From Desulforamulus ferrireducens (GTDB lineage Bacteria; Bacillota; Desulfotomaculia; Desulfotomaculales; Desulfotomaculaceae), in contig NZ_CP019698.1 of the NCBI RefSeq assembly GCF_002005145.1, forward strand, positions 1,736,001 through 1,800,000: 64,000 nucleotides of DNA, read 5' to 3'. The translations under genes were made by a program, and so were the position numbers. A model generated the notes under the pieces. That model was given only the letters and a program-made list of their open reading frames with translations, had not been told where the DNA came from and made no database searches. Below are positions 11,685-54,933 of the stretch, piece by piece (the first letter of the stretch is position 1; each line of letters starts with the position of its first letter).

Positions 11685-11695
11685 AATTGCCTATA

Positions 11696-13583
11696 ATTGA
11701 GTAGGAGGGAGCGATTAACTCCCGTCCTCTCACACCACCGTACGTACCGTTCGGTATACGGCGGTTCATGTTGTGGAACGAAGTTCGTTGTATCTTTCAA
11801 CTAAACTTTTAAGCCCTTGTTCTTGCCAAAAGGCGAGACCGAGGGCTTTGTTTACTTGTGGCGTGTTTGATAATCTCCAGTATCCCTTACGTGACCCGCT
11901 TATCAGCATTGCCCATTCTGGCGGTATTCCCAGCGCTACTAATTTCTTTCTTTTGGTCTTTGGTTTCTTCCATTGTTTTAAGTAGCACATTCGTAGTCGC
12001 CGTCTTAGCCATTCATCAAGGGATTGAAATACGCTTCTCGTATCAGCTAACCTGTAGTAGCCAATCCACCCGACTATATAGGTGTTGATTGCCTTGATTC
12101 TTTTGTTCATTGACTGGCTTTTGCTTCGGTTGGTTAGCTCCCGTATTTTGTCCATGAATCGCTTTTTCGTCTTTGGGGCTATTCTGATTTTGGGTTCTTT
12201 GTCCCACGTAAATGAAAATCCTAGAAATTTCCTCTTCCACGGCCTGTCTACTGCACTCTTTTGCATATTGACTTTAAGTTTTAGTCTCTCTTCTACAAAC
12301 TTTTTGACACTCGCCATGACTCTTTCCCCGGCTCTTCGGCTCTTTACGTAAATGTTGCAGTCATCTGCATATCTGACGAATCTGTGCCCTCTCCTGCAGA
12401 GTTCTAAGTCCAGTTCATTCAGCATGATGTTGGCTAAAAGTGGGCTCAACGGGCCTCCTTGAGGGGTTCCTTCTCCGGTTGCTATGCAGCATCCGTTTAC
12501 CATTACCCCGGCTTGGAGGTATCTCCGAATGAGCAGTAACACCCTTTTGTCTTGGATTCTTCTGGCCACCTTTGACATAAGTATGTCGTGGTTGACCTTG
12601 TCGAAGAATTTCTCCAAGTCCATGTCCACTACCCACCGGTATCCTTCCTTGATGTATTCTCTTGCCAGTTCTACTGCCGAATGTGCTCTTTTGTGGGGCC
12701 GAAAGCCGAAGCTAAATGGGACAAAGGTTGGTTCAAAGATGTCGTTCATTTTCTGTAGAAGGGCCTGTTGGATTAGGCGGTCTATTACCGTTGGTATTCC
12801 CAACAACCTTGTTCCTCCGTCTGGTTTCGGGATTTCGACTCGACGTACTGGTTTTGGTTGGTAGGTTCCTTTTAGGAGTTGTTCTCTAATTACGGGCCAC
12901 TGGTCTTTGAGGAATGGACGAAGGGATTCTATCGTCATTCCATCTATTCCAGCTGCTCCTTTGTTAGCCTCCACCCGGTATAGCGCATATAGCATATTGT
13001 CCCTTGCTACCACCCGTTCCATCAGGTTGTTACAACTTTCTTCGCGGGTCGTTTCTTTGGTTCGTGCCGGTGATAAACTCGGCCCTCCTCCAGTCCCCTG
13101 CGTATTCACCGCTTCCTCCTGAAGGTAGTTCCCTTTTGGGATTTTCTGCTGTCTTTGCTTACCTCTCGAACTCCCCATGAACTTCCCTCACAATCATGTT
13201 CAGCCCTTCCCTGCTCAGACGTCTCTTTGCAGGTACTATGGCCTCTGCTGACTCCTGCCGGTTCAGTCATACATCTCTGCATGGGTTACCAATTTAATTG
13301 GCGTTTCCGGCAGGCCTCCCCGGGTAAGAACGTTATCTTTCCCTCCATCTACCCGCTCCATTTACTCTCGACAGCCTTTGGTAGCAAGGACTTTATCTTG
13401 CTTTGCAGATTCATCCAACTGTCGCTAGCCTCACCTGGAGTTCGTGGTCCTCGGGCCAGAGGTTTGCCGCCGACTTCCTTCAGATTCTACCTCGCGATAG
13501 ACACCCTTGTCTTAAGCTATGGCTACTGCTACCTTCGCCATTCGGGACTTTCACCCTATAGATAACGCCCATGCCAGGCGCAC
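11696..13583 (-). mobile_element. Group II intron, copy 1 (class C-like), full length
   Basis: 1888 bp on the minus strand. The 5' end is GTGCGCCTGGCATGGGCG at 13583 and the 3' end CCTACTCAAT at 11696. Boundaries are fixed by comparing four copies in the window and by the exact restoration of the hdrA frame at copy 3. The domain V hairpin (about 11715-11765) contains a CGC triad, the RT lies in domain IV, and the 5' exon ends CTCTTT directly after a terminator hairpin: all marks of bacterial class C introns. It sits 11 bases behind the EF-G stop, antisense to it. Confidence 0.92.
11766..13178 (-). CDS. ltrA: Group II intron reverse transcriptase/maturase (copy 1)
   Basis: 470 residues. RT motifs in order: IPKPDGGTRLLGIPTVIDRL, FGFRPHKRAHSAV, DLEKFFDKVNHD, GTPQGGPLSPLLANIML, the catalytic FVRYADD, KFLGF. 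A maturase (X) domain follows (IKAINTYIVGWIGYYRLADT) and the protein ends soon after, with no HNH endonuclease domain, as in class C introns that prime without second-strand cleavage. The ATG is preceded by GAGGGAAG. Intact, so it may also act in trans on copy 2. Confidence 0.95.
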   Translation of the reverse strand: MGSSRGKQRQQKIPKGNYLQEEAVNTQGTGGGPSLSPARTKETTREESCNNLMERVVARDNMLYALYRVEANKGAAGIDGMTIESLRPFLKDQWPVIREQLLKGTYQPKPVRRVEIPKPDGGTRLLGIPTVIDRLIQQALLQKMNDIFEPTFVPFSFGFRPHKRAHSAVELAREYIKEGYRWVVDMDLEKFFDKVNHDILMSKVARRIQDKRVLLLIRRYLQAGVMVNGCCIATGEGTPQGGPLSPLLANIMLNELDLELCRRGHRFVRYADDCNIYVKSRRAGERVMASVKKFVEERLKLKVNMQKSAVDRPWKRKFLGFSFTWDKEPKIRIAPKTKKRFMDKIRELTNRSKSQSMNKRIKAINTYIVGWIGYYRLADTRSVFQSLDEWLRRRLRMCYLKQWKKPKTKRKKLVALGIPPEWAMLISGSRKGYWRLSNTPQVNKALGLAFWQEQGLKSLVERYNELRSTT

Positions 13584-13589
13584 AAAGAG

Positions 13590-13616
13590 AAACCAGAGGA
13601 CTTAAACCTCTGGTTT
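13590..13616. repeat. 27-bp palindromic direct repeat, left copy (former bidirectional terminator)
   Basis: AAACCAGAGG and CCTCTGGTTT arms around a short centre; the identical 27 bp recur at 15224-15250, so they flank the IS1182-like element as direct repeats. The palindrome was the terminator shared by the EF-G gene and the convergent 58-residue gene. Intron copy 1 inserted on its outer side (5' exon CTCTTT). Confidence 0.8.
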
Positions 13617-15918: not shown

Positions 15919-15955
15919 AAAAAGCAGGAATGCTGATTAGCAATTCCTGCTTTTT
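15919..15955 (+). terminator. Intrinsic terminator of tRNA-Trp
   Basis: AAAAAGCAGGAAT and ATTCCTGCTTTTT pair around an 11-base loop. Group II intron copy 2 starts 5 bases later, after CTTT. Confidence 0.85.
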
Positions 15956-15959
15956 CTTT

Positions 15960-17818
15960 GTGCGCCTGGCATGGGCGTTATCTATAGGGTGAAAGTCCCG
16001 AATGGCGAAGGTAGCAGTAGCTATAGCTTAAGACAAGGGTGTCTATCGCGAGGTAGAATCTGAAGGAAGTCGGCGGCAAACCTCTGGCCCGAGGACCACG
16101 AACTCCAGGTGAGGCTAGCGACAGTTGGATGAATCTGCAAAGCAAGATAAAGTCCATGCTACCAAAGGCTGTCGAGAGTAAATGGAGCGGGTAGATGGAG
16201 GGAAAGAAACGTTCTTACCCGGGGAGGCCTGCCGGAAACGCCAATTAAATTGGTAACCCATGCAGAGATGTATGACTGAACCGGCAGGAGTCAGCAGAGG
16301 CCATAGTACCTGCGAAGAGACGTCTGAGCAGGGAAGGGCTGAACATGATTGTGAGGGAAGTTCATGGGGAGTTCGAGAGGTAAGCAAAGACAGCAGAAAA
16401 TCCCAAAAGGGAACTACCTTCAGGAGGAAGCGGTGAATACGCAGGGGACTGGAGGAGGGCCGAGTTTATCACCGGCACGAACCAAAGAAACGACCCGCGA
16501 AGAAAGTTGTAACAACCTGATGGAACGGGTGGTAGCAAGGGACAATATGCTATATGCGCTATACCGGGTGGAGACTAACAAAGGAGCAGCTGGAATAGAT
16601 GGAATGACGATAGAATCCCTTCGTCCATTCCTCAAAGACCAGTGGCCCGTAATTAGAGAACAACTCCTAAAAGGAACCTACCAACCAAAACCAGTACGTC
16701 GAGTCGAAATCCCGAAACCAGACGGAGGAACAAGGTTGTTGGGAATACCAACGGTAATAGACCGCCTAATCCAACAGGCCCTTCTACAGAAAATGAACGA
16801 CATCTTTGAACCAACCTTTGTCCCATTTAGCTTCGGCTTTCGCCCCCACAAAAGAGCACATTCGGCAGTAGAACTGGCAAGAGAGTACATCAAGGAAGGA
16901 TACAGGTGGGTAGTGGACATGGACTTGGAGAAATTCTTCGACAAGGTCAACCACGACATACTTATGTCAAAGGTGGCCAGAAGAATCCAAGACAAAAGGG
17001 TGTTACTGCTCATTCGGAGATACCTCCAAGCCGGGGTAATGAAGGAACCCCCCAAGGAGGCCCGTTGAGCCCACTTTTAGCCAACATCATGCTGAATGAA
17101 CTGGACTTAGAACTCTGCAGGAGAGGGCACAGATTCGTCAGATATGCAGATGACTGCAACATTTACGTAAAGAGCCGAAGAGCCGGGGAAAGAGTCATGG
17201 CGAGTGTCAAAAAGTTTGTAGAAGAGAGACTAAAACTTAAAGTCAATATGCAAAAGAGTGCAGTAGACAGGCCGTGGAAGAGGAAATTTCTAGGATTTTC
17301 ATTTACGTGGGACAAAGAACCCAAAATCAGAATAGCCCCAAAGACGAAAAAGCGATTCATGGACAAAATACGGGAGCTAACCAACCGAAGCAAAAGCCAG
17401 TCAATGAACAAAAGAATCAAGGCAATCAACACCTATATAGTCGGGTGGATTGGCTACTACAGGTTAGCTGATACGAGAAGCGTATTTCAATCCCTTGATG
17501 AATGGCTAAGACGGCGACTACGAATGTGCTACTTAAAACAATGGAAGAAACCAAAGACCAAAAGAAAGAAATTAGTAGCGCTGGGAATACCGCCAGAATG
17601 GGCAATGCTGATAAGCGGGTCACGTAAGGGATACTGGAGATTATCAAACACGCCACAAGTAAACAAAGCCCTCGGTCTCGCCTTTTGGCAAGAACAAGGG
17701 CTTAAAAGTTTAGTTGAAAGATACAACGAACTTCGTTCCACAACATGAACCGCCGTATACCGAACGGTACGTACGGTGGTGTGAGAGGACGGGAGTTAAT
17801 CGCTCCCTCCTACTCAAT
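15960..17818 (+). mobile_element. Group II intron, copy 2, with two deletions
   Basis: 1859 bp, same ends as the other copies (GTGCG...CCTACTCAAT). It is 29 bp shorter: one base is missing near 16207 (GGGAAAGAAACG instead of GGGAAAGATAACG, in a segment complementary to the TCTTT of the 5' exon and thus a possible EBS1), and 28 bp are missing from the RT at 17041/17042. Inserted directly after the tRNA-Trp terminator. It could move only with RT supplied from another copy. Confidence 0.92.
16364..17748 (+). pseudogene. ltrA: Frameshifted intron reverse transcriptase (copy 2)
   Basis: Same protein as in copies 1, 3 and 4, but a 28-bp deletion between the DKRVLLLIRRYLQAGVM segment and GTPQGG shifts the frame. 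The first frame ends at 17068 after an altered tail. The second frame, holding the YADD motif and the maturase domain, has no start of its own that would make a whole enzyme. Confidence 0.9.
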
Positions 17819-17899
17819 TGTATCAAGAGGAGGTTAGTAACAGCTACCTTATTTCCGACAAACCTTAACAAAATATGACAAATATAATATAATAAATTT

Positions 17900-41947: not shown

Positions 41948-42527
41948 AGCTATAAGAACAAAAGTGCTGAAATTACGGTATTTACAAGTTTATTGTATAC
42001 AGTGATAGATTTATATGTGGTAACTTATATTAATAATGGTACTTCTGACCGATTACACCATAAATAGTATCTTCGTTTCGCTAGGTCCGTCAGGTGGCTG
42101 GCGTGGCAATATAAAATATACAGAGGAGCCTGACTAAGACAAGCCGTCCAATTATGCGACCCGCTAACGCTAAGATACACCTGTTTTTGTTAAGTTTAGT
42201 ACAAGCGTTTCGCTTGTTTGTTAACTGGTTACATAATTTTAGGGGTGAAGCCTCCGTACCATACTTTTAATGGTTCCTTAAAATGAACCGCGCTCCGGAT
42301 TTTACAATATAAATTTAGTTTAAAAATTCCCCACCAAGGGGTTAAGTGTATTTATCGGGGTAATTTTTTACCCCTTGGAAAAGCGTAAATAGGAGGACGG
42401 TGTGAATGCAGAGATGACAACAAAGCCTGAAAAAGTAGGAGCCGTATTAGTGGTAGGTTCCGGTATAGCAGGAATCCAGGCATCATTGGATTTAGCAGAA
42501 TCGGGCTACTATGTATACCTGGTAGAA

Positions 42528-44415
42528 ATTGAGTAGGAGGGAGCGATTAACTCCCGTCCTCTCACACCACCGTACGTACCGTTCGGTATACGGCGGTTCA
42601 TGTTGTGGAACGAAGTTCGTTGTATCTTTCAACTAAACTTTTAAGCCCTTGTTCTTGCCAAAAGGCGAGACCGAGGGCTTTGTTTACTTGTGGCGTGTTT
42701 GATAATCTCCAGTATCCCTTACGTGACCCGCTTATCAGCATTGCCCATTCTGGCGGTATTCCCAGCGCTACTAATTTCTTTCTTTTGGTCTTTGGTTTCT
42801 TCCATTGTTTTAAGTAGCACATTCGTAGTCGCCGTCTTAGCCATTCATCAAGGGATTGAAATACGCTTCTCGTATCAGCTAACCTGTAGTAGCCAATCCA
42901 CCCGACTATATAGGTGTTGATTGCCTTGATTCTTTTGTTCATTGACTGGCTTTTGCTTCGGTTGGTTAGCTCCCGTATTTTGTCCATGAATCGCTTTTTC
43001 GTCTTTGGGGCTATTCTGATTTTGGGTTCTTTGTCCCACGTAAATGAAAATCCTAGAAATTTCCTCTTCCACGGCCTGTCTACTGCACTCTTTTGCATAT
43101 TGACTTTAAGTTTTAGTCTCTCTTCTACAAACTTTTTGACACTCGCCATGACTCTTTCCCCGGCTCTTCGGCTCTTTACGTAAATGTTGCAGTCATCTGC
43201 ATATCTGACGAATCTGTGTCCCCGTTTCCAGAGCTCCCAGTCTAGGTCATTCAGCATGATGTTGGCTAAAAGTGGGCTCAACGGGCCTCCTTGGGGGGTT
43301 CCTTCTCCGGTTGCTATGCAGCATCCGTTTACCATTACCCCGGCTTGGAGGTATCTCCGAATGAGCAGTAACACCCTTTTGTCTTGGATTCTTCTAGACA
43401 CCTTCGACATAAGTATGTCGTGGTTGACCTTGTCAAAGAATTTCTCCAAGTCCATGTCCACTACCCACCTGTATCCTTCCTTGATGTATTCTCTTGCCAG
43501 TTCTACTGCCGAATGTGCTCTTTTGTGGGGGCGAAAGCCGAAGCTAAATGGGACAAAGGTTGGTTCAAAGATGTCGTTCATTTTCTGTAGAAGGGCCTGT
43601 TGGATTAGGCGGTCTATTACCGTTGGTATTCCCAACAACCTTGTTCCTCCGTCTGGTTTCGGGATTTCGACTCGACGTACTGGTTTTGGTTGGTAGGTTC
43701 CTTTTAGGAGTTGTTCTCTAATTACGGGCCACTGGTCTTTGAGGAATGGACGAAGGGATTCTATCGTCATTCCATCTATTCCAGCTGCTCCTTTGTTAGC
43801 CTCCACCCGGTATAGCGCATATAGCATATTGTCCCTTGCTACCACCCGTTCCATCAGGTTGTTACAACTTTCTTCGCGGGTCGTTTCTTTGGTTCGTGCC
43901 GGTGATAAACTCGGCCCTCCTCCAGTCCCCTGCGTATTCACCGCTTCCTCCTGAAGGTAGTTCCCTTTTGGGATTTTCTGCTGTCTTTGCTTACCTCTCG
44001 AACTCCCCATGAACTTCCCTCACAATCATGTTCAGCCCTTCCCTGCTCAGACGTCTCTTCGCAGGTACTATGGCCTCTGCTGACTCCTGCCGGTTCAGTC
44101 ATACATCTCTGCATGGGTTACCAATTTAATTGGCGTTTCCGGCAGGCCTCCCCGGGTAAGAACGTTATCTTTCCCTCCATCTACCCGCTCCATTTACTCT
44201 CGACAGCCTTTGGTAGCATGGACTTTATCTTGCTTTGCAGATTCATCCAACTGTCGCTAGCCTCACCTGGAGTTCGTGGTCCTCGGGCCAGAGGTTTGCC
44301 GCCGACTTCCTTCAGATTCTACCTCGCGATAGACACCCTTGTCTTAAGCTATAGCTACTGCTACCTTCGCCATTCGGGACTTTCACCCTATAGATAACGC
44401 CCATGCCAGGCGCAC
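42528..44415 (-). mobile_element. Group II intron, copy 3, antisense inside hdrA
   Basis: 1888 bp, ends identical to the other copies. The host frame defines both ends to the base. Unlike the other copies it sits in a coding region; its 5' exon (minus strand) reads CCAATGGCCGGCTCTTT, with the usual CTCTTT but only a weak hairpin. Clustered differences from copies 1, 2 and 4 occur at about 43215-43440. Confidence 0.93.
42598..44010 (-). CDS. ltrA: Group II intron reverse transcriptase/maturase (copy 3)
   Basis: 470 residues, intact, with the same RT (FVRYADD) and maturase domains as copy 1 and no endonuclease domain. It differs in a patch: MLNDLDWELWKRGHRF instead of MLNELDLELCRRGHRF, and SKVSRRI instead of SKVARRI. 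The clustering hints at gene conversion from a more distant intron not present in this window. Confidence 0.94.
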   Translation of the reverse strand: MGSSRGKQRQQKIPKGNYLQEEAVNTQGTGGGPSLSPARTKETTREESCNNLMERVVARDNMLYALYRVEANKGAAGIDGMTIESLRPFLKDQWPVIREQLLKGTYQPKPVRRVEIPKPDGGTRLLGIPTVIDRLIQQALLQKMNDIFEPTFVPFSFGFRPHKRAHSAVELAREYIKEGYRWVVDMDLEKFFDKVNHDILMSKVSRRIQDKRVLLLIRRYLQAGVMVNGCCIATGEGTPQGGPLSPLLANIMLNDLDWELWKRGHRFVRYADDCNIYVKSRRAGERVMASVKKFVEERLKLKVNMQKSAVDRPWKRKFLGFSFTWDKEPKIRIAPKTKKRFMDKIRELTNRSKSQSMNKRIKAINTYIVGWIGYYRLADTRSVFQSLDEWLRRRLRMCYLKQWKKPKTKRKKLVALGIPPEWAMLISGSRKGYWRLSNTPQVNKALGLAFWQEQGLKSLVERYNELRSTT

Positions 44416-44883
44416 AAAGAGCCGGCCATTGGCGGGACCATGCCGATGCTGGACAAAACCTTCCCCACCAACGACTGCTCCATGTGCATCCTGTCTCCCA
44501 AGCTGGTGGACTGCGGGAGACACCTGAACATTAAGACCATGACCAACTCCGAACTAGTGGGACTTGCGGGAGAACCCGGCCACTTCAAGGCCACCATCAG
44601 AACCAAAGCCCGTTACGTTGACCCGGCCAAATGCACCGGCTGCGGCAGCTGTGCGGAAGCCTGCCCGGTAAAAGTAGACGATGAATTCAACCAGGGGCTG
44701 GGCAAACGGAAAGCCATCTACAAACTATATGCCCAGGCCTTCCCCAACGCCTATGCCATAGACAACAGCAAATGCCTGAAATTCAAGAACCTGAATAACG
44801 ACAAACTGTGCGGTAAATGTATTAAAGCCTGCCAGGCCGGCGCCATCAACCACCACATGCAAGACGAAGAAATTGAAATTGAA

Positions 44884-44892
44884 GTAGGATCC
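44884..44892 (+). repeat. Target duplication, left copy
   Basis: GTAGGATCC, repeated at 46588-46596 on the other side of the IS. If the terminal C is given to the element, the duplication is 7 bp (TAGGATC). Confidence 0.75.
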
Positions 44893-46587
44893 CTGAATCC
44901 GTAAAGTATTTTTTTGTCTCACCCCTTAATTTGTAGGTAGATGAAGGAATATGTAGAAATATACATTAAATCAATATTCCTACTCTTCACCTCAGGGGTG
45001 CAACATGAAAAAGATAAAAACCAAGAAAATTAAAACAAAAAATGTAGATGATGATAGGCTCACTATCTTTGAAATTGAACAAGGTGACGAAGAATTATCG
45101 ACTCATTCTGGTTTAGCTCTTATAGGAGCATTACTAGCTAATACCAAGATAAAAACTCGGCTAAACAAGACAATGTCTGCTGAACAAAAGAAACCCCATA
45201 TTTCTAATGGAAGTGTTGGTATTGCCTACATTGGCCTACTATGCCAAGGAAAGAGTGATTTTGACCATATTGAACCCTTTCGAGAAGATAATTTCTTTGC
45301 AATCTCGTTAAACATCAAGGAGACACCGTCAAGCCCAACCCTTCGCCAACGACTAGATATGGTTGCTAAAGATAAGCAATGGAATAGTATCCTGTTGGAA
45401 GAATCTGCTGGGCTAATCAAGAAAACCAATGCACCGCTAACGCCAGTGTACCTGGGTCAGGAAAATAGAGTATATCTTCCACTGGATATTGATGTGTCTC
45501 CCTTTGATAACTCTAACACCAAAAAAGAAGGGGTCTCCCGTACCTACAAAGGCACGGATGGTTACGCTCCCATCTTTGCATATCTAGCAAAGGAAGGTTA
45601 TTGCGTAAATACTGAGTTACGCCAAGGAAGTGAACATTGCCAAAAGAACACTTCGGAATTTGTTGCCGAAAGCATTCGCTATGCCAAAAAAATCACCCAT
45701 TTGCCTTTGCTATTAAGAATGGATTCAGGCAATGACAGCGCTAACAATATTGAAATTTGCTTAAATGATGAAACTAAGGCAGATTTCATTATTAAGCGAA
45801 ACCTTCGCAAAGAAACTCCTGAAGGGTGGCTACTATTGGCAAAGAACAACAAAGATATTTACTGTCAGGAACGTGAAGGTAAAAAAGTCTACTATGGTTC
45901 CATGATGAAATACAAAAAGGAACTAAAAAGAGAAATCAGGGTGGTTTACAAGATTACAGAAAGAACCTTTGGTAAAGATGGCCAGATATTTCTCGTACCT
46001 CAAGTAGAGGCAGAAACCTATTGGACATCACTGCCGGACCCACCACATGTTATCGAAAAACTATACCATGAACATGGCACCAGCGAGCAGTTTCACAGTG
46101 AACTTAAGACAGACCTAGATTTAGAAAGACTACCCTCTGGCAAATTTGATACTAACAACCTAGTGTTACATTTCGGGGTAGTGGCCTACAATCTGTTAAG
46201 GATGATTGGTCAATCCACAACCAGGATGCAACATGTACCTATACGTAAGCAGGCAGAACGCCGCAGGATTAGGACAGTGATTCAGAATTTAATTACGTTA
46301 GCATCACGATTAGTGTCTCATGCAAGAAAAAAGAAATTACGATTTGGAAAGCACAGTCCTTGGTTTGAAACATTTAAACAAGCATACGCTGTGTGTTTAG
46401 CAAGGTAGAAATATCCACAGAACAATAAAGCTTTTGCGCTCAAAGAAGTGCTTAGATTGTTATTGCCAAATTTAGGTTTAAAACCATTATGGTAATAATT
46501 ACAGTATAAGACAGCCAGACAACGATACAAAATTTTCCATAAGATACTAAAGGATGGGGTTACCAAATAGGTCACTCACGGATTCAG
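44893..46587 (+). mobile_element. IS1380-like insertion sequence inside hdrA
   Basis: 1695 bp with terminal inverted repeats CTGAATCCGT / CGGATTCAG, flanked by a 9-bp direct repeat that interrupts the hdrA frame. The size and transposase resemble the IS1380 family, although those usually make shorter duplications (4-5 bp as I recall), so the family call is tentative. Inserted in the same orientation as hdrA. Confidence 0.8.
45005..46408 (+). CDS. IS1380-like DDE transposase
   Basis: 467 residues. First catalytic Asp region LPLDIDVSPFDNSNTKKEGV, then SRTYKGTDGYAPIFAYLAKE and CVNTELRQGSEHCQKNTSEF, second Asp in LLLRMDSGNDSANNIE, ADFIIKRNLRKE, and the Glu region HGTSEQFHSELKTDLDLERL. This string of motifs is what I recall of IS1380-type transposases. 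Intact from ATG to stop; the SD is poor (AGGGGTG 8 bases upstream). Confidence 0.75.
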   Translation: MKKIKTKKIKTKNVDDDRLTIFEIEQGDEELSTHSGLALIGALLANTKIKTRLNKTMSAEQKKPHISNGSVGIAYIGLLCQGKSDFDHIEPFREDNFFAISLNIKETPSSPTLRQRLDMVAKDKQWNSILLEESAGLIKKTNAPLTPVYLGQENRVYLPLDIDVSPFDNSNTKKEGVSRTYKGTDGYAPIFAYLAKEGYCVNTELRQGSEHCQKNTSEFVAESIRYAKKITHLPLLLRMDSGNDSANNIEICLNDETKADFIIKRNLRKETPEGWLLLAKNNKDIYCQEREGKKVYYGSMMKYKKELKREIRVVYKITERTFGKDGQIFLVPQVEAETYWTSLPDPPHVIEKLYHEHGTSEQFHSELKTDLDLERLPSGKFDTNNLVLHFGVVAYNLLRMIGQSTTRMQHVPIRKQAERRRIRTVIQNLITLASRLVSHARKKKLRFGKHSPWFETFKQAYAVCLAR

Positions 46588-46596
46588 GTAGGATCC
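46588..46596 (+). repeat. Target duplication, right copy
   Basis: GTAGGATCC, identical to 44884-44892; the hdrA frame resumes at 46597. Confidence 0.75.
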
Positions 46597-49038
46597 GTAC
46601 TGCTGGTACCTGGTTTTGAAATCTTTGACCCCAGCGAACTGGCCCTATACAAATACGGGCAGCTGAAAAACGTAGTTACCTCCCTGGAATTTGAACGGAT
46701 CCTAAGCGCCTCTGGCCCCTTTGGCGGGCATCTGGTGCGACCCAGTGACCATAAAGAACCGCAAAAAATAGCCTGGATCCAATGTGTAGGCTCCCGCAAC
46801 TGCCGCATCGGCCATGGCTACTGCTCCTCCGTATGCTGCATGTACGCCATCAAACAATCAGTGATAGCCAAAGAACACGCAGCCTATGACCTAAATGCCA
46901 ACATCTTCTACATGGACATGCGGACCTACGGCAAAGACTTTGAAAAATACTACGAGCGGGCCCAAAAACAATACGGCGTTAACTTTGTAAGAAGCCGTGT
47001 CTATGGGCTGGACCCGGGCGAAGAAGACAACGTAAAAATCCGCTACGCCCTGGAAGACGGCACGGTAGTGACCGAAGAATACGACATGGTAGTACTGTCA
47101 GTGGGACTGGAGCCTAACCGCAAAGCCGTAGAACTGGCCAAACAACTGGGCGTAGAACTAAACCAATACAACTTTGCCGACGTAACAAAACTAACCGGGG
47201 TAGCCAGCAGCAAACCTGGTATCTACGTAGCCGGTGCCTTCAGCGGTCCGCGGGACATTCCGGAAACCGTCATGCAAGCCAGCGCTGCCGCCGGAGAAGT
47301 ACAAAAACTACTGGCGGAAGCCAAAGGGACCCTGACCAAAACCAAAGAATACCCGGCCCCCAAAGACGTGACCGGAGAAATCGTACGCACCGGCGTATTC
47401 GTCTGTCACTGCGGCATCAACATCGGCAGCGTAGTAGACGTACCGGCGGTGGCCGAATATGCCAAAACCCTGCCGGGCGTAGTATACGCCACCGACAAAC
47501 TATATGCCTGCTCCCAGGACTCCAGCGCCCAAATTAAAGAAGCCATCGAACAATACGGCCTCAACCGGATCGTAGTGGCCTCCTGCAGCCCGCGGACCCA
47601 CGAGCCCATGTTCCAAGAGACCCTAAAAGAAGCCGGGTTAAACCCGCACCTATTTGAAATGGCCAACATTCGGGACCACTGCTCCTGGGTACACCAAAAC
47701 GAACCGGAAAAAGCCACCGAAAAAGCCAAAGACCTGGTAAGAATGGCGGTTAAAAAAGCCGCCCTGTTAGAACCGATACAACCGGTAACCCTGCCCATGA
47801 ACCACGATGCACTGGTGATCGGCGGCGGCGTATCCGGCATGACTGCGGCACTAAACCTGGCGGATCAGGGCTACCAAGTATACCTGGTAGAAAAAGCCAA
47901 GGAACTGGGCGGTATCGCCAAACGCATCCGTTACGGCATGGGCGGCGAAGACGTACCGGCTTTCCTGAACCAGTTAATCAACCAAATACAAAACCATACC
48001 AACATCAAAGTCTACACCGGGGTAGAAATAGCGGATGTACAAGGCTTCATGGGTAACTACCAAACCAAACTCACAAATGGTGAAGAAATCAAACACGGCG
48101 TAGCCATCATCGCCACCGGGGCGGCAGAATACCAGCCGCAAGAATACCTGTACGGCCAAAACCACCGGGTACGGACCCTCTTAGAAGTAGAAGGGCTGCT
48201 GGCAGAAGGGAGACTTAAAAACTCCAACAACTTCGTATTCATCCAATGCGTAGGCAGCCGTGACGAAGAAAGACCGTACTGCAGCCGGATATGCTGCACC
48301 AAATCAATCAAACTGGCCCTAAAAATAAAAGAACAAAAACCCGGTGCCAACATCTTCATCCTGTACCGTGACATCCGGACCTACGGCTACTTTGAAGATT
48401 TATACACCGAAGCAAGACGAAAAGGCATCATCTTCGTAAGATACAGCACCGATGCCAAACCGGTAGTAGAACTAACCAGCACCGGCACCAAAGTAACCTT
48501 CACCGACCATGTACTAAACCGGCCGGTAGAAATATATGCGGACATCATCGGCTTGGCCAGCGCCATCGTACCAAACGACAACACCACGCTGTCCAAACTA
48601 TTCAAAGTACCGTTAAACGCCGAAGGCTTCTTCCTGGAAGCCCACCTGAAACTGCGTCCGGTAGACTTCGGAACCGACGGGGTATTCATGTGCGGCTTAG
48701 CCCACGGGCCCAAAAACCTGGAAGAAAACATCGCCCAGGGTAAAGCAGCCGCCGGCAGAGCCGCCACCGCCCTGGCCAAAGAAAACATCCAAACAGACGG
48801 TAAAGCAGCCTTCGTCAATAAACGGAAATGCATGGCCTGCGGCGTGTGCGTAGAAGTATGCCCGGCCAAAGCAGCCAGCCTGGTAACGGACGAAAGAGGC
48901 AACACCGCGGCCGAAGTAAACCCGGCCCTGTGCAAAGGATGCGGCGCCTGCTCATCCTCCTGCCGCTGCGGAGCCATCAACGTCAAAGGCTGCAGCAACG
49001 AACAAATCATGGCCATGGTGAGAGCGCTGGCCTAGCTT

Positions 49039-49300
49039 TTGGGGTATTTCCCTGGGGTCCGGCTATTCGCCATTCGCTATTCGCTTTTCGACTTACGGGT
49101 AGTGCTTAGGGGTCCGGACTTTGGGGTCTTCCTCTGAGGTCCGGCTGTTAGCCGTTAGCCATTGGCTGTTGGACTTACGGGTAGTGCTTAGGGGTCTAGC
49201 CTCTAGGGTAGGCCTTATGGGTCTGGTTGTTAGACTTTGGGGTAGTCCTCACGGGTCCAGTGGTAAGTCGTTACTCCGGGCCTTAGACATTAGAAAACCA
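49039..49300. repeat. Imperfect tandem repeat with heptad cores after hdrA
   Basis: Two units of about 85 bp share GGGGTCCGGCT at the start and GACTTACGGGTAGTGCTTAG at the end, with different 7-bp arrays in the middle: CTATTCG, CCATTCG, CTATTCG, CTTTTCG at about 49064-49091, and GCTGTTA, GCCGTTA, GCCATTG, GCTGTTG at about 49144-49171. No gene is seen between 49036 and 49659. Confidence 0.6.
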
Positions 49301-49394
49301 AATGCCTAGTAAGGTGCTGGGCGCCTAAAGCCCAGCACCCCCAGATAAACCTAACAGAAGGCACCCGACCTAAAAGAAATACAAACACAAACAA

Positions 49395-49534
49395 GACCCA
49401 AAAGAAATACAGCAATAGGCCAACAACAGGACCCAAAAGAAATACGGCAATAGACCAACAACAAGACCAAAAAGAAATACAGCAATAGACCAACAACAGG
49501 ACCCAAAAGAAAAACAGAAAAAGACAAGACCACA
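49395..49534. repeat. Four tandem copies of a 35-bp unit
   Basis: Units start GACCCAAAAGAAATAC (or GACCAAAAAGAAATAC) at 49395, 49430, 49465 and 49500, with AATAGACCAACAACA in each of the first three. The period of 35 is five heptads. The array is strongly purine/C biased on this strand. A heptad array (AGCTGAA, GGCTGAC, AGCTGAC; GCGAACA units) continues at 49556-49640. Confidence 0.65.
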
Positions 49535-49659
49535 AAGAAATACAGGAAAAGAACTGAAAGCTGAAGGCTGACAGCTGACAGCTAAGCGCCAATAACGCCA
49601 ACCGCGAAAGGCGAACAGCGAACAGCGAGCCAGCCAACAGCTTGACAGGAGGGGAAACA

Positions 49660-50085
49660 ATGGGCGAACAAGAACCGAAAATTGTAGCGTTTCTATGCAA
49701 CTGGTGCAGCTACGCCGGTGCAGACCTGGCAGGGGTAGGCCGACTGCAATACCCCCCGAACGTCCGCGTCATAAGAGTACCCTGCTCCGGACGCATCAAC
49801 CCGCTGTTCATCATTGCGGGCCTAAGATCCGGTGCAGATGCAATACTAACCTCAGGGTGACACCCTGGCGACTGCCACTATGTTAGTGGCAACCTGGTGG
49901 CCCGCCGTAAATTTGCATTATTAAAAAACATGCTGAACTACATGGGCGTAGAAAAAGACCGCGTCAATTTCACCTGGGTATCAGCCTCCGAAGGAGCCAG
50001 ATTTGCCGACCTAATGACCGACCTGACCAACAAAGTAAAAGCCATGGGCCCGAACAAAGGGCTGTTTGAGAAAAAAGCGGAGTGA
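49660..50085 (+). CDS. FlxD/MvhD-like delta subunit with in-frame UGA (probable selenocysteine 67)
   Basis: Frame from ATG 49660 (SD AGGAGGGG) through an in-frame TGA at 49858-49860 to TGA 50085, 141 residues. Before the [23 protein letters not shown] and the Cys in RVPCSGRI; after it: [18 protein letters not shown]. MvhD-family proteins have GCHxGDCHYxxGN here, so the UGA stands exactly where the first Cys is expected, the usual Sec/Cys exchange. A hairpin follows directly. MvhD/FlxD relays electrons between HdrA and an oxidoreductase. A simple nonsense mutation is the alternative but would not choose this codon. Confidence 0.85.
49858..49899 (+). promoter_or_regulatory. Candidate bacterial SECIS hairpin
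   Basis: Immediately after UGA: TGCCACTA (49873-49880), loop TGT, TAGTGGCA (49884-49891), a perfect 8-bp stem whose apex is about 24 bases from the UGA; outer CACC (49861) can pair with GGTG (49896). Position and size suit bSECIS elements. Confidence 0.65.
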
Positions 50086-50096
50086 GGTGAGAGGGA

Positions 50097-51044
50097 ATGG
50101 AAAAACTGACCCAACAAATAAGAGAAACCGCCAAAAAACTGCTGGCAGAAAAGAAAGTAGACCTGGTAGTAGGATTTGCCCAGGGCAGCCTGCCCCTCCG
50201 CAGCACCCCGTACTTTGCCAGAACCCCGGAACAAGCCGAAAACCTGATCTGGAGCAGCACCTGCGAAAACAACCTGGCCAACTACCTGCGTAAACGCGGA
50301 GAAAAAGTGGCCGTCATTGCCAAAGGCTGCGATGTGCGCGCCATTGTAGGCCTCATTAAAGAAGGACAAATCGTCAAAGAAAACCTCTACATCATCGGCG
50401 TACCCTGCGCAGGCATGATCGACCGGAAACAAATCAACGCGGCAGTAGAAGGCAAAGAAATCCTGGCCGCCAGCGACAACGGCAGCGAAATACTGCTGAA
50501 AGGAAAAGACTTTGAAAAGACCGTCGCCAAACAAGACGTCATGTTTGGCTCCTGCAAAACCTGCCAATACAACAACCCGGTGATCTTTGACGAACTTCTG
50601 GGCGAAAAAGTGGCGGCCAGAGAAGCAAACTACGCTGACATCGAAGCCTTTGAAGCCTTAAGCGACGAAGAAAGAAGAGCCTTCATCGCCAAAGAAATGT
50701 CCAAATGCATCCGCTGCTATGCTTGCCGACAAGCCTGCCCCATGTGCTACTGCAGCGAATGCTTCGTAGACTGCAACACCCCGGCCTGGATTGGCAAGAG
50801 CGCCAAGAGTATAGACGACAACGCCCTGTTCCAAGCAGTACGTGTATTCCACCTGGCCGGCCGCTGCGTAGACTGTGGCGCCTGCGAACGGGCCTGCCCC
50901 ATGGGCATCAAACTAAGCCTGCTAACCCGTAAGATGGTAAAAGACGTCAAAGAACTCTTTGGGGCGGAAGCCGGTGTCAACCTGGAAGACCCACCGGCCC
51001 TCAACACCTTCAAATTTGAAGACAAAGAAGACTTCTTGCTATAG
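50097..51044 (+). CDS. 4Fe-4S dicluster protein of the Flx cluster (FlxB-like)
   Basis: 315 residues. The N-terminal half (VDLVVGFAQGSLPLRSTPYF, AVIAKGCDVRAIVGLIKEGQ, GVPCAGMIDRKQI) resembles F420-hydrogenase beta-type subunits; the C-terminal half carries CIRCYACRQACPMCYCSEC and CVDCGACERACPMG, room for at least two [4Fe-4S] clusters. Probably an electron relay between FlxA and HdrA/FlxD. Starts 11 bases after flxD, with GAGGTGAGAGGG as SD. The exact Flx letter is uncertain. Confidence 0.75.
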   Translation: MEKLTQQIRETAKKLLAEKKVDLVVGFAQGSLPLRSTPYFARTPEQAENLIWSSTCENNLANYLRKRGEKVAVIAKGCDVRAIVGLIKEGQIVKENLYIIGVPCAGMIDRKQINAAVEGKEILAASDNGSEILLKGKDFEKTVAKQDVMFGSCKTCQYNNPVIFDELLGEKVAAREANYADIEAFEALSDEERRAFIAKEMSKCIRCYACRQACPMCYCSECFVDCNTPAWIGKSAKSIDDNALFQAVRVFHLAGRCVDCGACERACPMGIKLSLLTRKMVKDVKELFGAEAGVNLEDPPALNTFKFEDKEDFLL

Positions 51045-51061
51045 GAATGAGGTGAAAAAGG

Positions 51062-52066
51062 ATGATCATAAATAAAAACGAAATAGCCAACATACTGACC
51101 AAACTGGCAGAGGAATACCTGGTCATAGCCCCGGTACAAAAAGATGGCATAGTACAATTTTCCGCCATCAAAAACGGTGCAGAAGCCTGCCTCACCTTTG
51201 CCAACACCAAAAAACCCGGCAAAGAAATCCTTTTCCCTCAGTCCGAAGAACTATACAGCTACACCATAGATACTGAAGGAGTAAGGATGCAAGCCAATGT
51301 TGACCAGAAAGAGACCATCGTATTTGGCATGCGCCCCTGCGACGTCAAATCCCTGGTACTATTGGACAACGTCTTTAAAAACGACCAATACCAAGACGTC
51401 TACTACCTGACCCGGCGGGCCAACACCCTGATTGTGGGTTTGGGCTGCAACGAACCGGCAGCCACCTGCTTCTGCAGCAACATGGCCTGCGGCCCGTTCG
51501 CAAAAGAAGGTAGTGATATCTTTCTGACCGACATAGGCGAAGCCTACGTAGCAGAAGGCATCAGCGAAAAAGGTCAAGCACTTTTGGCAAAACTTGGCCT
51601 GGGCAGTGCCACCGCAGAACAAAAAGCCTTAGCTAACCAACTACAAGCCGAAACAAAAGCAGACGGGGGCGTAAACATCGCAGGTATAGCCGAAAAACTG
51701 GGTGGCATGTTTGAACACCCCTTCTGGGACAGCCTGCACGAAAAATGCCTGGGCTGTGCTGCCTGCACCTACCTGTGTCCCACCTGCCACTGCTTTGACA
51801 TAGCGGACGAAGCTACAGACTGCAACGGCTGCCGGGTAAGAAACTGGGATGCCTGCATGTTCCCCTTATTTACCCTGCACGGCTCCGGGCACAACCCCAG
51901 ACCAAACGGGAAAGCCCGCTGGAGACAAAGACTCATGCATAAATTCAACTACTTTGTAGACAGATACAACGCCACCGCCTGCGTTGGTTGCGGTAGGTGC
52001 ATCAAAAACTGTCCTGTAAACCTGGATATCCGCCAAGCACTGGCAGACATCCGGGCGTTGGACTAG
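51062..52066 (+). CDS. Fe-S oxidoreductase subunit, AsrA/FlxC-like
   Basis: 334 residues resembling anaerobic sulfite reductase subunit A and hydrogenase beta-type subunits: FGMRPCDVKSLVLLDNVF, VGLGCNEPAATCFC, CLGCAACTYLCPTCHCFDI and, after a Trp/Arg-rich loop, CVGCGRCIKNCPVNLDI. Two [4Fe-4S] clusters. It would pair with the next gene (AsrB/FlxA-type flavoprotein) as an NAD(P)H-linked electron entry module. Follows the previous gene by 17 bases; SD AGGTGAAAAAGG. Confidence 0.8.
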   Translation: MIINKNEIANILTKLAEEYLVIAPVQKDGIVQFSAIKNGAEACLTFANTKKPGKEILFPQSEELYSYTIDTEGVRMQANVDQKETIVFGMRPCDVKSLVLLDNVFKNDQYQDVYYLTRRANTLIVGLGCNEPAATCFCSNMACGPFAKEGSDIFLTDIGEAYVAEGISEKGQALLAKLGLGSATAEQKALANQLQAETKADGGVNIAGIAEKLGGMFEHPFWDSLHEKCLGCAACTYLCPTCHCFDIADEATDCNGCRVRNWDACMFPLFTLHGSGHNPRPNGKARWRQRLMHKFNYFVDRYNATACVGCGRCIKNCPVNLDIRQALADIRALD

Positions 52067-52088
52067 CGGAAGCGAGGTTGGAAAAGAG

Positions 52089-52922
52089 ATGAGAAACCCT
52101 TATCTACCGCTGCCGATGAAACTGGTGAAAAACTTCACCGAGACATCAGACAAACTAATTCACACCTTCACATTAGAATTCCTAAACGAACAAGATGCCG
52201 AGAACTTCAAATATGAGCCCGGCCAATTTGCTGAAGTAATGGTCTACGGCAAAGGCGAAGCCCCCTTTGGTATTGCCTCATCCCCCACGGAAAAAGGTAT
52301 TCTGAAATTCTCAGTAGCCAAAGTAGGGGTAGTATCCACTGCCCTGCACATGCTGGAAGAAGGCTCAATAGTAGGGGTGCGGGGCCCGCTGGGTAACAGC
52401 TACCCCCTGGAACAACTGAAAGGCAAGAGTCTCACCATCATCGGCGGAGGCTTTGCCTTCACCACCCTGCGCTCCACTATCCAGTACATCCTGGATCCGG
52501 CCAACCGAGGGGACTATGGAGACCTAACCGTTATCTACGGGGCCCGTAATCCCGGCCTTTTACTATACAAAGACGAACTGGCGGCCTGGGATGCCAGAAG
52601 CGACATCAACCTGGTAACCACCATTGACCGGGCGGTGGAAGGTTGGAACGGACGGGTAGGCTTTATCCCGGCAGTAACCAAAGAAGTGGCACCAAAGACC
52701 GACTATGCCATCATCTGCGGACCGCCGGTAATGATTAAATTTACCCTGCCGGTACTGGAAGAATGCGGCTTCACCCCTGACCGGATCATCATGAGCCTAG
52801 AGAACAGAATGAAGTGTGGCATTGGCATGTGCGGTCGCTGCAACGTAGGCAGCAAATATGTCTGCAAGGACGGCCCGGTGTTCACCAAGGAGCAGCTGGA
52901 TAAACTGCCCAATGAGTATTAA
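52089..52922 (+). CDS. FAD/NAD(P)-binding oxidoreductase, FlxA/AsrB-like
   Basis: 277 residues of the ferredoxin-NADP reductase fold: flavin-binding YEPGQFAEVMVYGKGEAPFG, nucleotide-binding LTIIGGGFAFTTLRS and ICGPPVMIKF, and a C-terminal PyrK-like [2Fe-2S] motif MKCGIGMCGRCNVG...VCKDGPVF. Feeds NADH electrons to the Fe-S partners. Last gene of the hdrA-flx run; ended by a terminator hairpin. Confidence 0.85.
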   Translation: MRNPYLPLPMKLVKNFTETSDKLIHTFTLEFLNEQDAENFKYEPGQFAEVMVYGKGEAPFGIASSPTEKGILKFSVAKVGVVSTALHMLEEGSIVGVRGPLGNSYPLEQLKGKSLTIIGGGFAFTTLRSTIQYILDPANRGDYGDLTVIYGARNPGLLLYKDELAAWDARSDINLVTTIDRAVEGWNGRVGFIPAVTKEVAPKTDYAIICGPPVMIKFTLPVLEECGFTPDRIIMSLENRMKCGIGMCGRCNVGSKYVCKDGPVFTKEQLDKLPNEY

Positions 52923-52960
52923 AAAACAATCTGTTCGGATAGGATAAATATATCAATTGA

Positions 52961-52996
52961 AAGAGAAGCGGTGGTTTATGCCAATCGCTTCTCTTT
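52961..52996 (+). terminator. Intrinsic terminator of the flx cluster
   Basis: AAGAGAAGCG (52961) / CGCTTCTCTT (52986) with a 15-base loop. Intron copy 4 starts at 52997, directly after CTCTTT. Confidence 0.8.
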
Positions 52997-54884
52997 GTGC
53001 GCCTGGCATGGGCGTTATCTATAGGGTGAAAGTCCCGAATGGCGAAGGTAGCAGTAGCTATAGCTTAAGACAAGGGTGTCTATCGCGAGGTAGAATCTGA
53101 AGGAAGTCGGCGGCAAACCTCTGGCCCGAGGACCACGAACTCCAGGTGAGGCTAGCGACAGTTGGATGAATCTGCAAAGCAAGATAAAGTCCATGCTACC
53201 AAAGGCTGTCGAGAGTAAATGGAGCGGGTAGATGGAGGGAAAGATAACGTTCTTACCCGGGGAGGCCTGCCGGAAACGCCAATTAAATTGGTAACCCATG
53301 CAGAGATGTATGACTGAACCGGCAGGAGTCAGCAGAGGCCATAGTACCTGCAAAGAGACGTCTGAGCAGGGAAGGGCTGAACATGATTGTGAGGGAAGTT
53401 CATGGGGAGTTCGAGAGGTAAGCAAAGACAGCAGAAAATCCCAAAAGGGAACTACCTTCAGGAGGAAGCGGTGAATACGCAGGGGACTGGAGGAGGGCCG
53501 AGTTTATCACCGGCACGAACCAAAGAAACGACCCGCGAAGAAAGTTGTAACAACCTGATGGAACGGGTGGCAGCAAGGGACAATATGCTATATGCGCTAT
53601 CCCGGGTGGAGGCTAACAAAGGAGCAGCTGGAATAGATGGAATGACGATAGAATCCCTTCGTCCATTCCTCAAAGACCAGTGGCCCGTAATTAGAGAACA
53701 ACTCCTAAAAGGAACCTACCAACCAAAACCAGTACGTCGAGTCGAAATCCCGAAACCAGACGGAGGAACAAGGTTGTTGGGAATACCAACGGTAATAGAC
53801 CGCCTAATCCAACAGGCACTTCTACAGAAAATGAACGACATCTTTGAACCAACCTTTGTCCCATTTAGCTTCGGCTTTCGGCCCCACAAAAGAGCACATT
53901 CGGCAGTAGAACTGGCAAGAGAATACATCAAGGAAGGATACAGGTGGGTAGTGGACATGGACTTGGAGAAATTCTTCGACAAGGTCAACCACGACATACT
54001 TATGTCAAAGGTGGCCAGAAGAATCCAAGACAAAAGGGTGTTACTGCTCATTCGGAGATACCTCCAAGCCGGGGTAATGGTAAACGGATGCTGCATAGCA
54101 ACCGGAGAAGGAACCCCTCAAGGAGGACCGTTAAGTCCACTCTTAGCCAACATCATGCTGAATGAACTGGACTTAGAACTCTGCAGGAGAGGGCACAGAT
54201 TCGTCAGATATGCAGATGACTGCAACATTTACGTAAAGAGCCGAAGAGCCGGGGAAAGAGTCATGGCGAGTGTCAAAAAGTTTGTAGAAGAGAGACTAAA
54301 ACTTAAAGTCAATATGCAAAAGAGTGCAGTAGACAGGCCGTGGAAGAGGAAATTTCTAGGATTTTCATTTACGTGGGACAAAGAACCCAAAATCAGAATA
54401 GCCCCAAAGACGAAAAAGCGATTCATGGACAAAATACGGGAGCTAACCAACCGAAGCAAAAGCCAGTCAATGAACAAAAGAATCAAGGCAATCAACACCT
54501 ATATAGTCGGGTGGATTGGCTACTACAGGTTAGCTGATACGAGAAGCGTATTTCAATCCCTTGATGAATGGCTAAGACGGCGACTACGAATGTGCTACTT
54601 AAAACAATGGAAGAAACCAAAGACCAAAAGAAAGAAATTAGTAGCGCTGGGAATACCGCCAGAATGGGCAATGCTGATAAGCGGGTCACGTAAGGGATAC
54701 TGGAGATTATCAAACACGCCACAAGTAAACAAAGCCCTCGGTCTCGCCTTTTGGCAAGAACAAGGGCTTAAAAGTTTAGTTGAAAGATACAACGAACTTC
54801 GTTCCACAACATGAACCGCCGTATACCGAACGGTACGTACGGTGGTGTGAGAGGACGGGAGTTAATCGCTCCCTCCTACTCAAT
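52997..54884 (+). mobile_element. Group II intron, copy 4, full length
   Basis: 1888 bp, GTGCG to CCTACTCAAT, plus strand, downstream of the flx terminator and so not disrupting any gene. It differs from the other copies by a cluster of silent changes at about 54118-54141. Confidence 0.93.
53402..54814 (+). CDS. ltrA: Group II intron reverse transcriptase/maturase (copy 4)
   Basis: 470 residues, intact; differs from copy 1 by a few residues (VAARDN, LSRVEANK). The same RT and maturase domains, no endonuclease domain. Silent changes around the GTPQGGPLSPLLA codons suggest a patch received from another copy. Confidence 0.95.
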   Translation: MGSSRGKQRQQKIPKGNYLQEEAVNTQGTGGGPSLSPARTKETTREESCNNLMERVAARDNMLYALSRVEANKGAAGIDGMTIESLRPFLKDQWPVIREQLLKGTYQPKPVRRVEIPKPDGGTRLLGIPTVIDRLIQQALLQKMNDIFEPTFVPFSFGFRPHKRAHSAVELAREYIKEGYRWVVDMDLEKFFDKVNHDILMSKVARRIQDKRVLLLIRRYLQAGVMVNGCCIATGEGTPQGGPLSPLLANIMLNELDLELCRRGHRFVRYADDCNIYVKSRRAGERVMASVKKFVEERLKLKVNMQKSAVDRPWKRKFLGFSFTWDKEPKIRIAPKTKKRFMDKIRELTNRSKSQSMNKRIKAINTYIVGWIGYYRLADTRSVFQSLDEWLRRRLRMCYLKQWKKPKTKRKKLVALGIPPEWAMLISGSRKGYWRLSNTPQVNKALGLAFWQEQGLKSLVERYNELRSTT

Positions 54885-54933
54885 TAATATGTTAACCAAA
54901 AGGTGCTGTAGCTTAATAGGGATGATGTGTATT

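What the first reader, a model, noticed from the sequence alone, without database searches (positions are those of the whole stretch)
49660..50085. Selenocysteine-type UGA in an MvhD/FlxD-like subunit
The frame is split by TGA at 49858 exactly where the family motif GC-HxGDCHY has its first Cys; the protein continues without any other lesion ([11 protein letters not shown]) to the next stop. An 8-bp perfect hairpin begins 13 bases after the UGA. Ordinary gene callers would report two fragments and miss the protein. Sec at this position would tune the redox site between the Flx oxidoreductase and HdrA.
Basis: partly seen in the sequence, partly recalled or inferred. Interest (0 to 1): 0.85.

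Follow-up and report, generated by a model that had tools for sequence, protein, structure and literature searches.

The report
Selenocysteine-containing FlxD/MvhD electron-transfer subunit

Summary
Window 49660-50085 encodes an FlpD/MvhD-family protein (PF02662, E 6e-52) whose codon 67 is TGA (49858-49860), with an 8-bp hairpin, loop UGU, starting at the 13th base after it. The genome has selA, selB, selD and a tRNA-Sec with UCA anticodon. In the 253 homologue copies analysed the aligned codon is TGA (85) or a Cys codon (168), with no other stop in the aligned domain. The hairpin tracks the TGA: all 8 pairs in 50 of 50 distinct Sec copies of the phylum set, 0 of 96 distinct Cys copies. selA is over its cut-off in 47 of 47 TGA-bearing phylum genomes and in 13 of 19 chosen Cys-only ones. 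UGA is therefore very probably selenocysteine. The kind is known: Zhang et al. 2006 (PMC1794560, Table 3) list FrhD (2) among the selenoproteins of Desulfotomaculum reducens; Desulfobacterium autotrophicum has four MvhD selenoproteins (PMC2702500). No protein-level evidence was available here.

The parts
49660..50085 (+). flxD/mvhD selenoprotein gene, 141 aa with Sec67; terminal stop TGA 50083-50085
   Evidence: PF02662 175.2 bits vs cut-off 22.3; 99% identical orthologue with one TGA in sister genome G399
49858..49860 (+). in-frame UGA read as selenocysteine (codon 67)
   Evidence: Cys codon or TGA in 253 of 253 homologue copies analysed
49873..49891 (+). bacterial SECIS hairpin: arms 49873-49880 and 49884-49891, loop UGU 49881-49883
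   Evidence: all 8 pairs in 50 of 50 distinct Sec copies of the phylum set vs 0 of 96 Cys copies
49647..49652 (+). AGGAGG ribosome-binding-like site
   Evidence: read
50097..51044 (+). flxC-like 4Fe-4S subunit
   Evidence: Fer4 domains; same gene order in the tandem operon copies
51062..52066 (+). flxB-like subunit (Fer4_22; resembles sulfhydrogenase beta, below that model's cut-off)
52089..52922 (+). flxA-like FAD/NAD(P)-binding subunit
42420..42528 (+). hdrA, first fragment (tblastn to HdrA residues 2-39)
42529..44415 (-). group II intron (maturase ORF 42598-44010) inserted antisense in hdrA; the uninterrupted site is present in sister genome G399
44416..44892 (+). hdrA, second fragment (tblastn to residues 37-197)
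44893..46581 (+). IS1380-family element (transposase ORF 45005-46408) in hdrA; the flanks overlap by 15 bp on the G399 sequence, as a target duplication would
46582..49035 (+). hdrA, third fragment (tblastn to residues 192-1008)

Best explanation
The gene encodes a FlxD/MvhD-type electron-transfer subunit in which UGA codon 67 is decoded as selenocysteine by SelB and tRNA-Sec, directed by the hairpin that begins at the 13th base after the UGA. The homology, the machinery and the association of UGA with the hairpin are shown here; decoding itself is inferred. By analogy with MvhD, which carries a [2Fe-2S] cluster, FlxD most likely passes electrons from the NAD(P)H-oxidising FlxABC module to the bifurcating FAD of HdrA, with Sec replacing a conserved Cys at or next to the cluster site to adjust its chemistry (inferred; ligands not tested). 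Because the hdrA of this operon is disrupted, the FlxDCBA made here would work with HdrA from the two complete tandem copies elsewhere in the genome, or is a spare copy (inferred). The confidence is for Sec decoding, not for the role.
For: selA, selB, selD and tRNA-Sec(UCA) in the genome, each over its family cut-off. Four flxD copies in the genome, each with exactly one TGA; all 9 genomes searched in the genus have TGA-bearing copies, 23 in all. Codon 67 is TGA in 85 and Cys in 168 of 253 copies, nothing else, and no other stop in the aligned domain. All 8 template pairs in 50/50 distinct phylum Sec copies vs 0/96 distinct Cys copies, MWU p=2e-25 (relatedness not corrected); 49 of 50 vs 9 of 96 have a bSECIS-like stem of at least 6 bp with G in the first two loop bases. 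Coding constraint continues in frame past the UGA: against the G400 orthologue (L141), 20 codons differ synonymously and 5 not, reversed in the shifted frames (7 vs 20; 0 vs 26). selA over cut-off in 47 of 47 TGA genomes of the phylum set. Four Desulfobacterota Sec copies (L117, L120, L122, L135) have another stem there, ATTACCT-GGA-AGGTAAT (read by eye). Solved MvhD chains 5odc_D and 7bkb_F have Cys there.
Against: No protein-level evidence. The single-gene hairpin statistic is weak (z -1.5; 1.7% of synonymous re-codings). Of 10 Sec copies among the named loci only 2 have all 8 template pairs and 7 have a bSECIS-like stem of at least 6 bp with the G rule; L061 and L062 have a 7-bp stem whose loop (ATGTA) has its G third, and L113 has only 3 template pairs and no evident stem. 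In the phylum set L198 keeps the stem but has no G in its loop (TTC). The operon's hdrA is broken, so this copy may be drifting, although flxD (save the TGA), flxC, flxB and flxA are open and the DNA of 49535-52925 is 99.4% identical to the sister genome G399, whose own flxB matches there only in two pieces.
Confidence: 0.95

Rival explanations
1. The TGA is a nonsense mutation or sequencing error in a decaying operon; the gene is a pseudogene split in two.
For: hdrA of the same operon is broken by two mobile elements, and a decayed flxD fragment with a TAA lies in the tandem copy of sister genome G399.
Against: One TGA stands in each of the 23 full-length copies of the 9 genus genomes searched and in 52 of 150 phylum copies, at one column only, with no other stop in the domain; the hairpin is kept; frame constraint continues downstream.
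Confidence: 0.02
2. UGA is read as tryptophan or another residue by near-cognate read-through or a reassigned code, without selenium.
For: None found; the window carries a tRNA-Trp with the ordinary CCA anticodon (the rest of the genome was not surveyed for tRNA-Trp).
Against: The same gene ends in TGA; Trp is not found at the column in any of 253 copies; a tRNA-Sec with UCA anticodon and selA/B/D exist.
Confidence: 0.02
3. The codon is a genuine Sec codon, but this particular operon is non-functional because hdrA is disrupted and expression is blocked; the product matters only from the other loci. (Compatible with Sec decoding; it concerns function, so its odds are not exclusive of the best explanation.)
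For: Antisense group II intron and IS1380-family element inside hdrA upstream; two complete hdrA copies in the tandem operons elsewhere; the consensus scan of 49000-50150 found no promoter-like site upstream of flxD.
Against: flxC, flxB and flxA frames are intact and flxD differs from the G399 copy by one synonymous codon in the parts compared, although recent insertion would also explain this.
Confidence: 0.35

Closest known systems
FrhD (= MvhD) selenoproteins of Desulfotomaculum reducens, Moorella thermoacetica, Carboxydothermus hydrogenoformans, Syntrophomonas wolfei (Zhang et al. 2006, PMC1794560; passages incl. Table 3 seen)
   Same: Same family, listed as selenoproteins; D. reducens with FrhD (2). 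That D. reducens now belongs to the genus of the nearest named relative (Desulforamulus) is recalled, from no call
   Different: Different species; the passages seen do not give this locus, the broken hdrA or the hairpin conservation
MvhD1, 2, 3, 5 of Desulfobacterium autotrophicum HRM2 (PMC2702500, passages)
   Same: Sec-containing MvhD encoded beside hdrA or hdrL
   Different: Loci with Mvh, Fdh or HdrL partners; two HdrA there are selenoproteins too, whereas the three hdrA pieces in the window are open without a TGA
VhuD of methanogenic archaea
   Same: Sec-containing PF02662 subunit between donor module and HdrA (PMC13188914 and PMC6019823, passages)
   Different: Archaeal SECIS lies in the 3' untranslated region (PMC1088965, passage); the NCBIfam VhuD model scores 122.8 vs cut-off 215
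FlxD of FlxABCD-HdrABC of Desulfovibrio vulgaris (as cited in PMC4759654)
   Same: MvhD-like subunit beside an FAD/NAD(P) subunit, two Fe-S subunits and hdrA
   Different: hdrB/hdrC were not found beside it here; hdrA broken; no sequence comparison with D. vulgaris was made

Membership tests
FlpD/MvhD (PF02662) | Profile score above gathering cut-off | tested here: met
   175.2 vs 22.3 bits, profile 1-123/123
Bacterial selenoprotein gene | In-frame UGA aligned with a conserved Cys | tested here: met
   253 of 253 copies analysed have TGA or a Cys codon
Bacterial selenoprotein gene | bSECIS: 3-9 nt loop, 4-16 bp stem, G in first two loop bases, 16-37 nt from UGA | tested here: met
   3 nt, 8 bp, G at loop position 2, 20 nt; constraints from PMC13188914. 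The bSECISearch program itself was not run
Bacterial selenoprotein gene | selA, selB, selC, selD in the genome | tested here: met
   each over its family cut-off
Bacterial selenoprotein gene | Selenium in the protein / full-length product | not testable with these tools
   needs mass spectrometry or 75Se
VhuD (NF045873) | Score above curated cut-off | tested here: not met
   122.8 vs 215 bits
FlxABCD-HdrABC complex | flxA, flxB, flxC, flxD contiguous | tested here: met
   49660-52922, order D-C-B-A, by domain content; orthology to D. vulgaris Flx by sequence was not tested
FlxABCD-HdrABC complex | intact hdrA with hdrB and hdrC | tested here: not met
   hdrA in three pieces; the HdrD-like gene of the tandem operon has no tblastn hit in the window at E 1e-15; no dedicated hdrB/hdrC search was made

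The most novel reading that the evidence does not exclude
In the phylum set the Sec form of FlxD/MvhD carries an almost invariant 19-nt SECIS (43 of 50 distinct Sec copies share TGCCACTATGNTAGTGGCA), while Sec and Cys forms interchange several times on the tree. The most novel reading is that Sec-MvhD is an old, selectively kept form of the bifurcating electron donor whose selenium tunes its [2Fe-2S] potential for FlxABCD-HdrA, and that the window operon, having lost its own HdrA to mobile elements, supplies Sec-FlxD to HdrA made elsewhere.
Probability: 0.25. Interest if true: 0.45.

Novelty: new member of a known kind. Interest (0 to 1): 0.27.

Why it matters
It gives the correct reading of a core energy-metabolism subunit that would otherwise appear as two fragments or a pseudogene, and adds a well-supported case, with Sec and Cys homologues side by side, in which the role of selenium in electron bifurcation could be tested. 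The kind of protein is already catalogued, so the step for the field is small.

Tried and rejected
Pseudogene or sequencing error: rejected because the TGA is fixed across the genus genomes searched and sits at one column in the phylum set. UGA = Trp: rejected. Hairpin as a mere by-product of the conserved peptide: possible for one gene (1.7% of synonymous re-codings give 8 pairs) but not across the family. Promoter/terminator scan of 49000-50150 gave nothing above shuffles: 1 promoter-like site vs mean 0.7, lying inside flxD, and 2 terminator-like sites vs 2.2. A tree of 238 rows needs at least 13 Sec/Cys changes by parsimony, at least 5 if only starred branches are believed; it cannot tell gain from loss, and 98 of 234 inner branches are open. 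The Sec/Cys column was not masked there, but Sec had been entered as C, so it carried no difference. Structure prediction was not run; sequence matches to solved MvhD sufficed. I did not find which residues bind the cluster: the passages seen in PMC6019823, PMC6085437 and PMC13188914 do not say. A full-text search for selenocysteine with FlxD found 0 papers; with MvhD 20 papers.

Biases and dropped rows: the 150 phylum copies are the top-scoring rows printed (398 genomes, 160 with a match; further matches were not printed), 30 given as loci and 120 fetched, so weaker homologues are missing. The 80 named loci came from two peptide patterns, one of which contains the Cys codon, so Sec is under-represented there; they were counted apart. 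Left out before counting: the distant relatives and fragments of the genus (L005, L159-L165), of which L159 is a short decayed G399 piece with a TAA. In one search copies identical over the 63 nt from codon 67 were counted once (52 to 50 Sec, 98 to 96 Cys in the phylum set; 23 to 15 in the genus). selA does not imply Sec-FlxD: of 19 genomes chosen because their only match is a Cys copy, 14 have a selA match, 13 over cut-off, and 5 none.

Full report
What is there. The frame 49660-50085 (+) starts with ATG after an AGGAGG and runs to a TGA at 50083-50085, with a single internal stop, TGA at 49858-49860. Read through, the 141-residue product is an FlpD/MvhD-family protein (PF02662, 175.2 bits) and matches solved MvhD chains such as 5odc_D at E 6e-57; the two alignments displayed, to 5odc_D and 7bkb_F, have Cys at the UGA position. 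The gene order is hdrA (broken), flxD, flxC, flxB, flxA.

Machinery. The window lies in a one-contig genome of 3,240,180 bases. It has SelA (623.7 bits, cut-off 267.9), SelB (378.4, cut-off 242.25) next to SelA, SelD (403, cut-off 125) and a tRNA-Sec (68.7, gathering 47) with anticodon TCA. SelD itself has one in-frame TGA near its start. The nearest named relative found is Desulforamulus aquiferis, 88% (which may leave out the window's own genome); the genus Desulforamulus is therefore inferred, not stated by any record.

Sec or Cys. The genome has four TGA-bearing flxD copies (window; 299667 and 308172, identical to each other; 1240410, 54% identical to the window's) and one more distant relative, 28%, without a stop. 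All 9 genomes searched in the genus have TGA copies. I analysed 253 copies: 23 from the genus, 150 top-scoring printed rows from 398 genomes of the phylum (160 of them with a match), and 80 named loci found by peptide patterns. Codon 67 is TGA in 23, 52 and 10, and TGC/TGT in 0, 98 and 70; none has another residue there or another stop in the aligned domain.

Hairpin. The stem 49873-49880/49884-49891 with loop UGU fits the bSECIS model quoted in PMC13188914 (passages): loop 3 nt, stem 8 bp, G second in the loop, 20 nt from UGA. All 8 pairs are present in 15 of 15 distinct genus Sec copies and 50 of 50 distinct phylum Sec copies, and in 0 of 96 distinct phylum Cys copies; median folding energy is -14.4 vs -8.6 kcal/mol for the two phylum groups. 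With the G rule and a stem of at least 6 bp anywhere in the range searched, the counts are 49 of 50 vs 9 of 96; the Sec exception, L198, has loop TTC. 43 of 50 distinct phylum Sec copies share the 19-mer TGCCACTATGNTAGTGGCA; none of the 96 phylum or 70 named Cys copies does. Among the 10 named Sec loci 2 have all 8 template pairs and 7 meet the G rule with at least 6 bp; one of the 70 named Cys loci has all 8 template pairs, and 5 of the 70 meet the G rule. Four Desulfobacterota copies have another 7-bp stem with loop GGA at a shifted place (read by eye), as a structural rather than a sequence requirement would predict; L061 and L062 have a 7-bp stem with the G third in the loop, and L113 no evident stem. 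The single-gene statistics are weak and are not what the case rests on. The gene's own terminal TGA has no hairpin.

Coding constraint beyond the UGA. Between the window copy and orthologues of 8 other genomes of the genus plus the in-genome copy L002, codon differences downstream of the UGA are mostly synonymous in frame (20 vs 5 for L141, 22 vs 5 for L143; weakest 14 vs 9 for L146) and mostly non-synonymous in the shifted frames. The G399 orthologue (L140) differs by one synonymous codon downstream and none upstream, so it is uninformative by itself.

Co-occurrence. selA is over cut-off in 47 of 47 phylum genomes with a TGA copy among the printed rows. Of 19 genomes chosen because their single match is a Cys copy, 13 are over cut-off, 1 has a match below it and 5 have none.

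hdrA is in three pieces, matching HdrA residues 2-39, 37-197 and 192-1008, each open in its frame. Sister genome G399 has the uninterrupted sequence: an antisense group II intron (42529-44415) and an IS1380-family element (44893-46581, flanks overlapping by 15 bp) stand in the window. Being antisense to hdrA, the intron cannot splice from the hdrA transcript (inference). Two other copies of the operon, about 7 kb each and 99.2% identical, lie in tandem at about 295.9-311.4 kb, with hdrA open for 1009 and 1014 codons from the starts taken, so HdrA is still encoded.

Mechanism. In the methanogen complex MvhD carries a [2Fe-2S] cluster that hands electrons to the FAD of HdrA (PMC6019823, passages). 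By analogy FlxD joins the FlxABC module to HdrA. That Sec67 modifies this site is inference; no passage I saw names the ligands.

Known or new. FrhD (= MvhD) is a listed selenoprotein family: 19 bacterial selenoproteins in Table 1 of the 2006 survey, with Desulfotomaculum reducens listed as having FrhD (2) (PMC1794560, passages); four MvhD selenoproteins in Desulfobacterium autotrophicum (PMC2702500, passages); the family is also in the tables of PMC9312934 and PMC13188914 (passages). In D. reducens, MvhD proteins Dred_1329 and Dred_0144 have proteomic abundance values, and Dred_0138, by position probably the other tandem copy of this gene (my inference), is listed as a pseudogene (PMC4759654, section 13 read); whether peptides beyond the UGA were seen is not stated there. 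The finding is a correct, well-supported new member of a known kind.

Noticed in passing
window 42420-49035: hdrA of the operon is broken by an antisense group II intron and an IS1380-family element; sister genome G399 shows the uninterrupted site.
   Followed up: partly
window 11692-13596, 15947-17822, 42527-44421, 52989-54886: Four near-identical group II introns (about 98.6-99.9% over the matched stretches) in 64 kb, plus a fifth related one near 805-1367.
   Followed up: no
G000:C1 about 295.9-311.4 kb (L026, L027): The hdrA-flxDCBA operon is present as a tandem duplication of about 7 kb units at 99.2% identity; flxD pairs about 8 kb apart also occur in G401 and G203, and a decayed second copy in G399.
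   Followed up: partly
L023 (G000:C1:1148670-1149593): SelD itself has an in-frame TGA near its N-terminus (TKSAG-U-AAKLGP), so it is probably a selenoprotein too.
   Followed up: partly
window 49038-49641: The hdrA-flxD spacer is largely made of diverged tandem repeats, with 82-nt, 35-nt (3.9 copies) and 7-nt units among them.
   Followed up: no
window 21001: Another TGA with at least 40 open codons on both sides and an 8-bp bSECIS-like stem (loop GCAACT) on the + strand; not checked for homology.
   Followed up: no
L028 869-8360: Beside the 54% flxD paralogue lie two large hdrA genes (1483 and 1018 aa), the first with an inserted glutamate-synthase-like domain by eye; resembles D. reducens locus VI as described in PMC4759654.
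   Followed up: no
L117, L120, L122, L135: Four Desulfobacterota Sec-MvhD copies have a different stem-loop (ATTACCT-GGA-AGGTAAT) a few bases further from the UGA.
   Followed up: no
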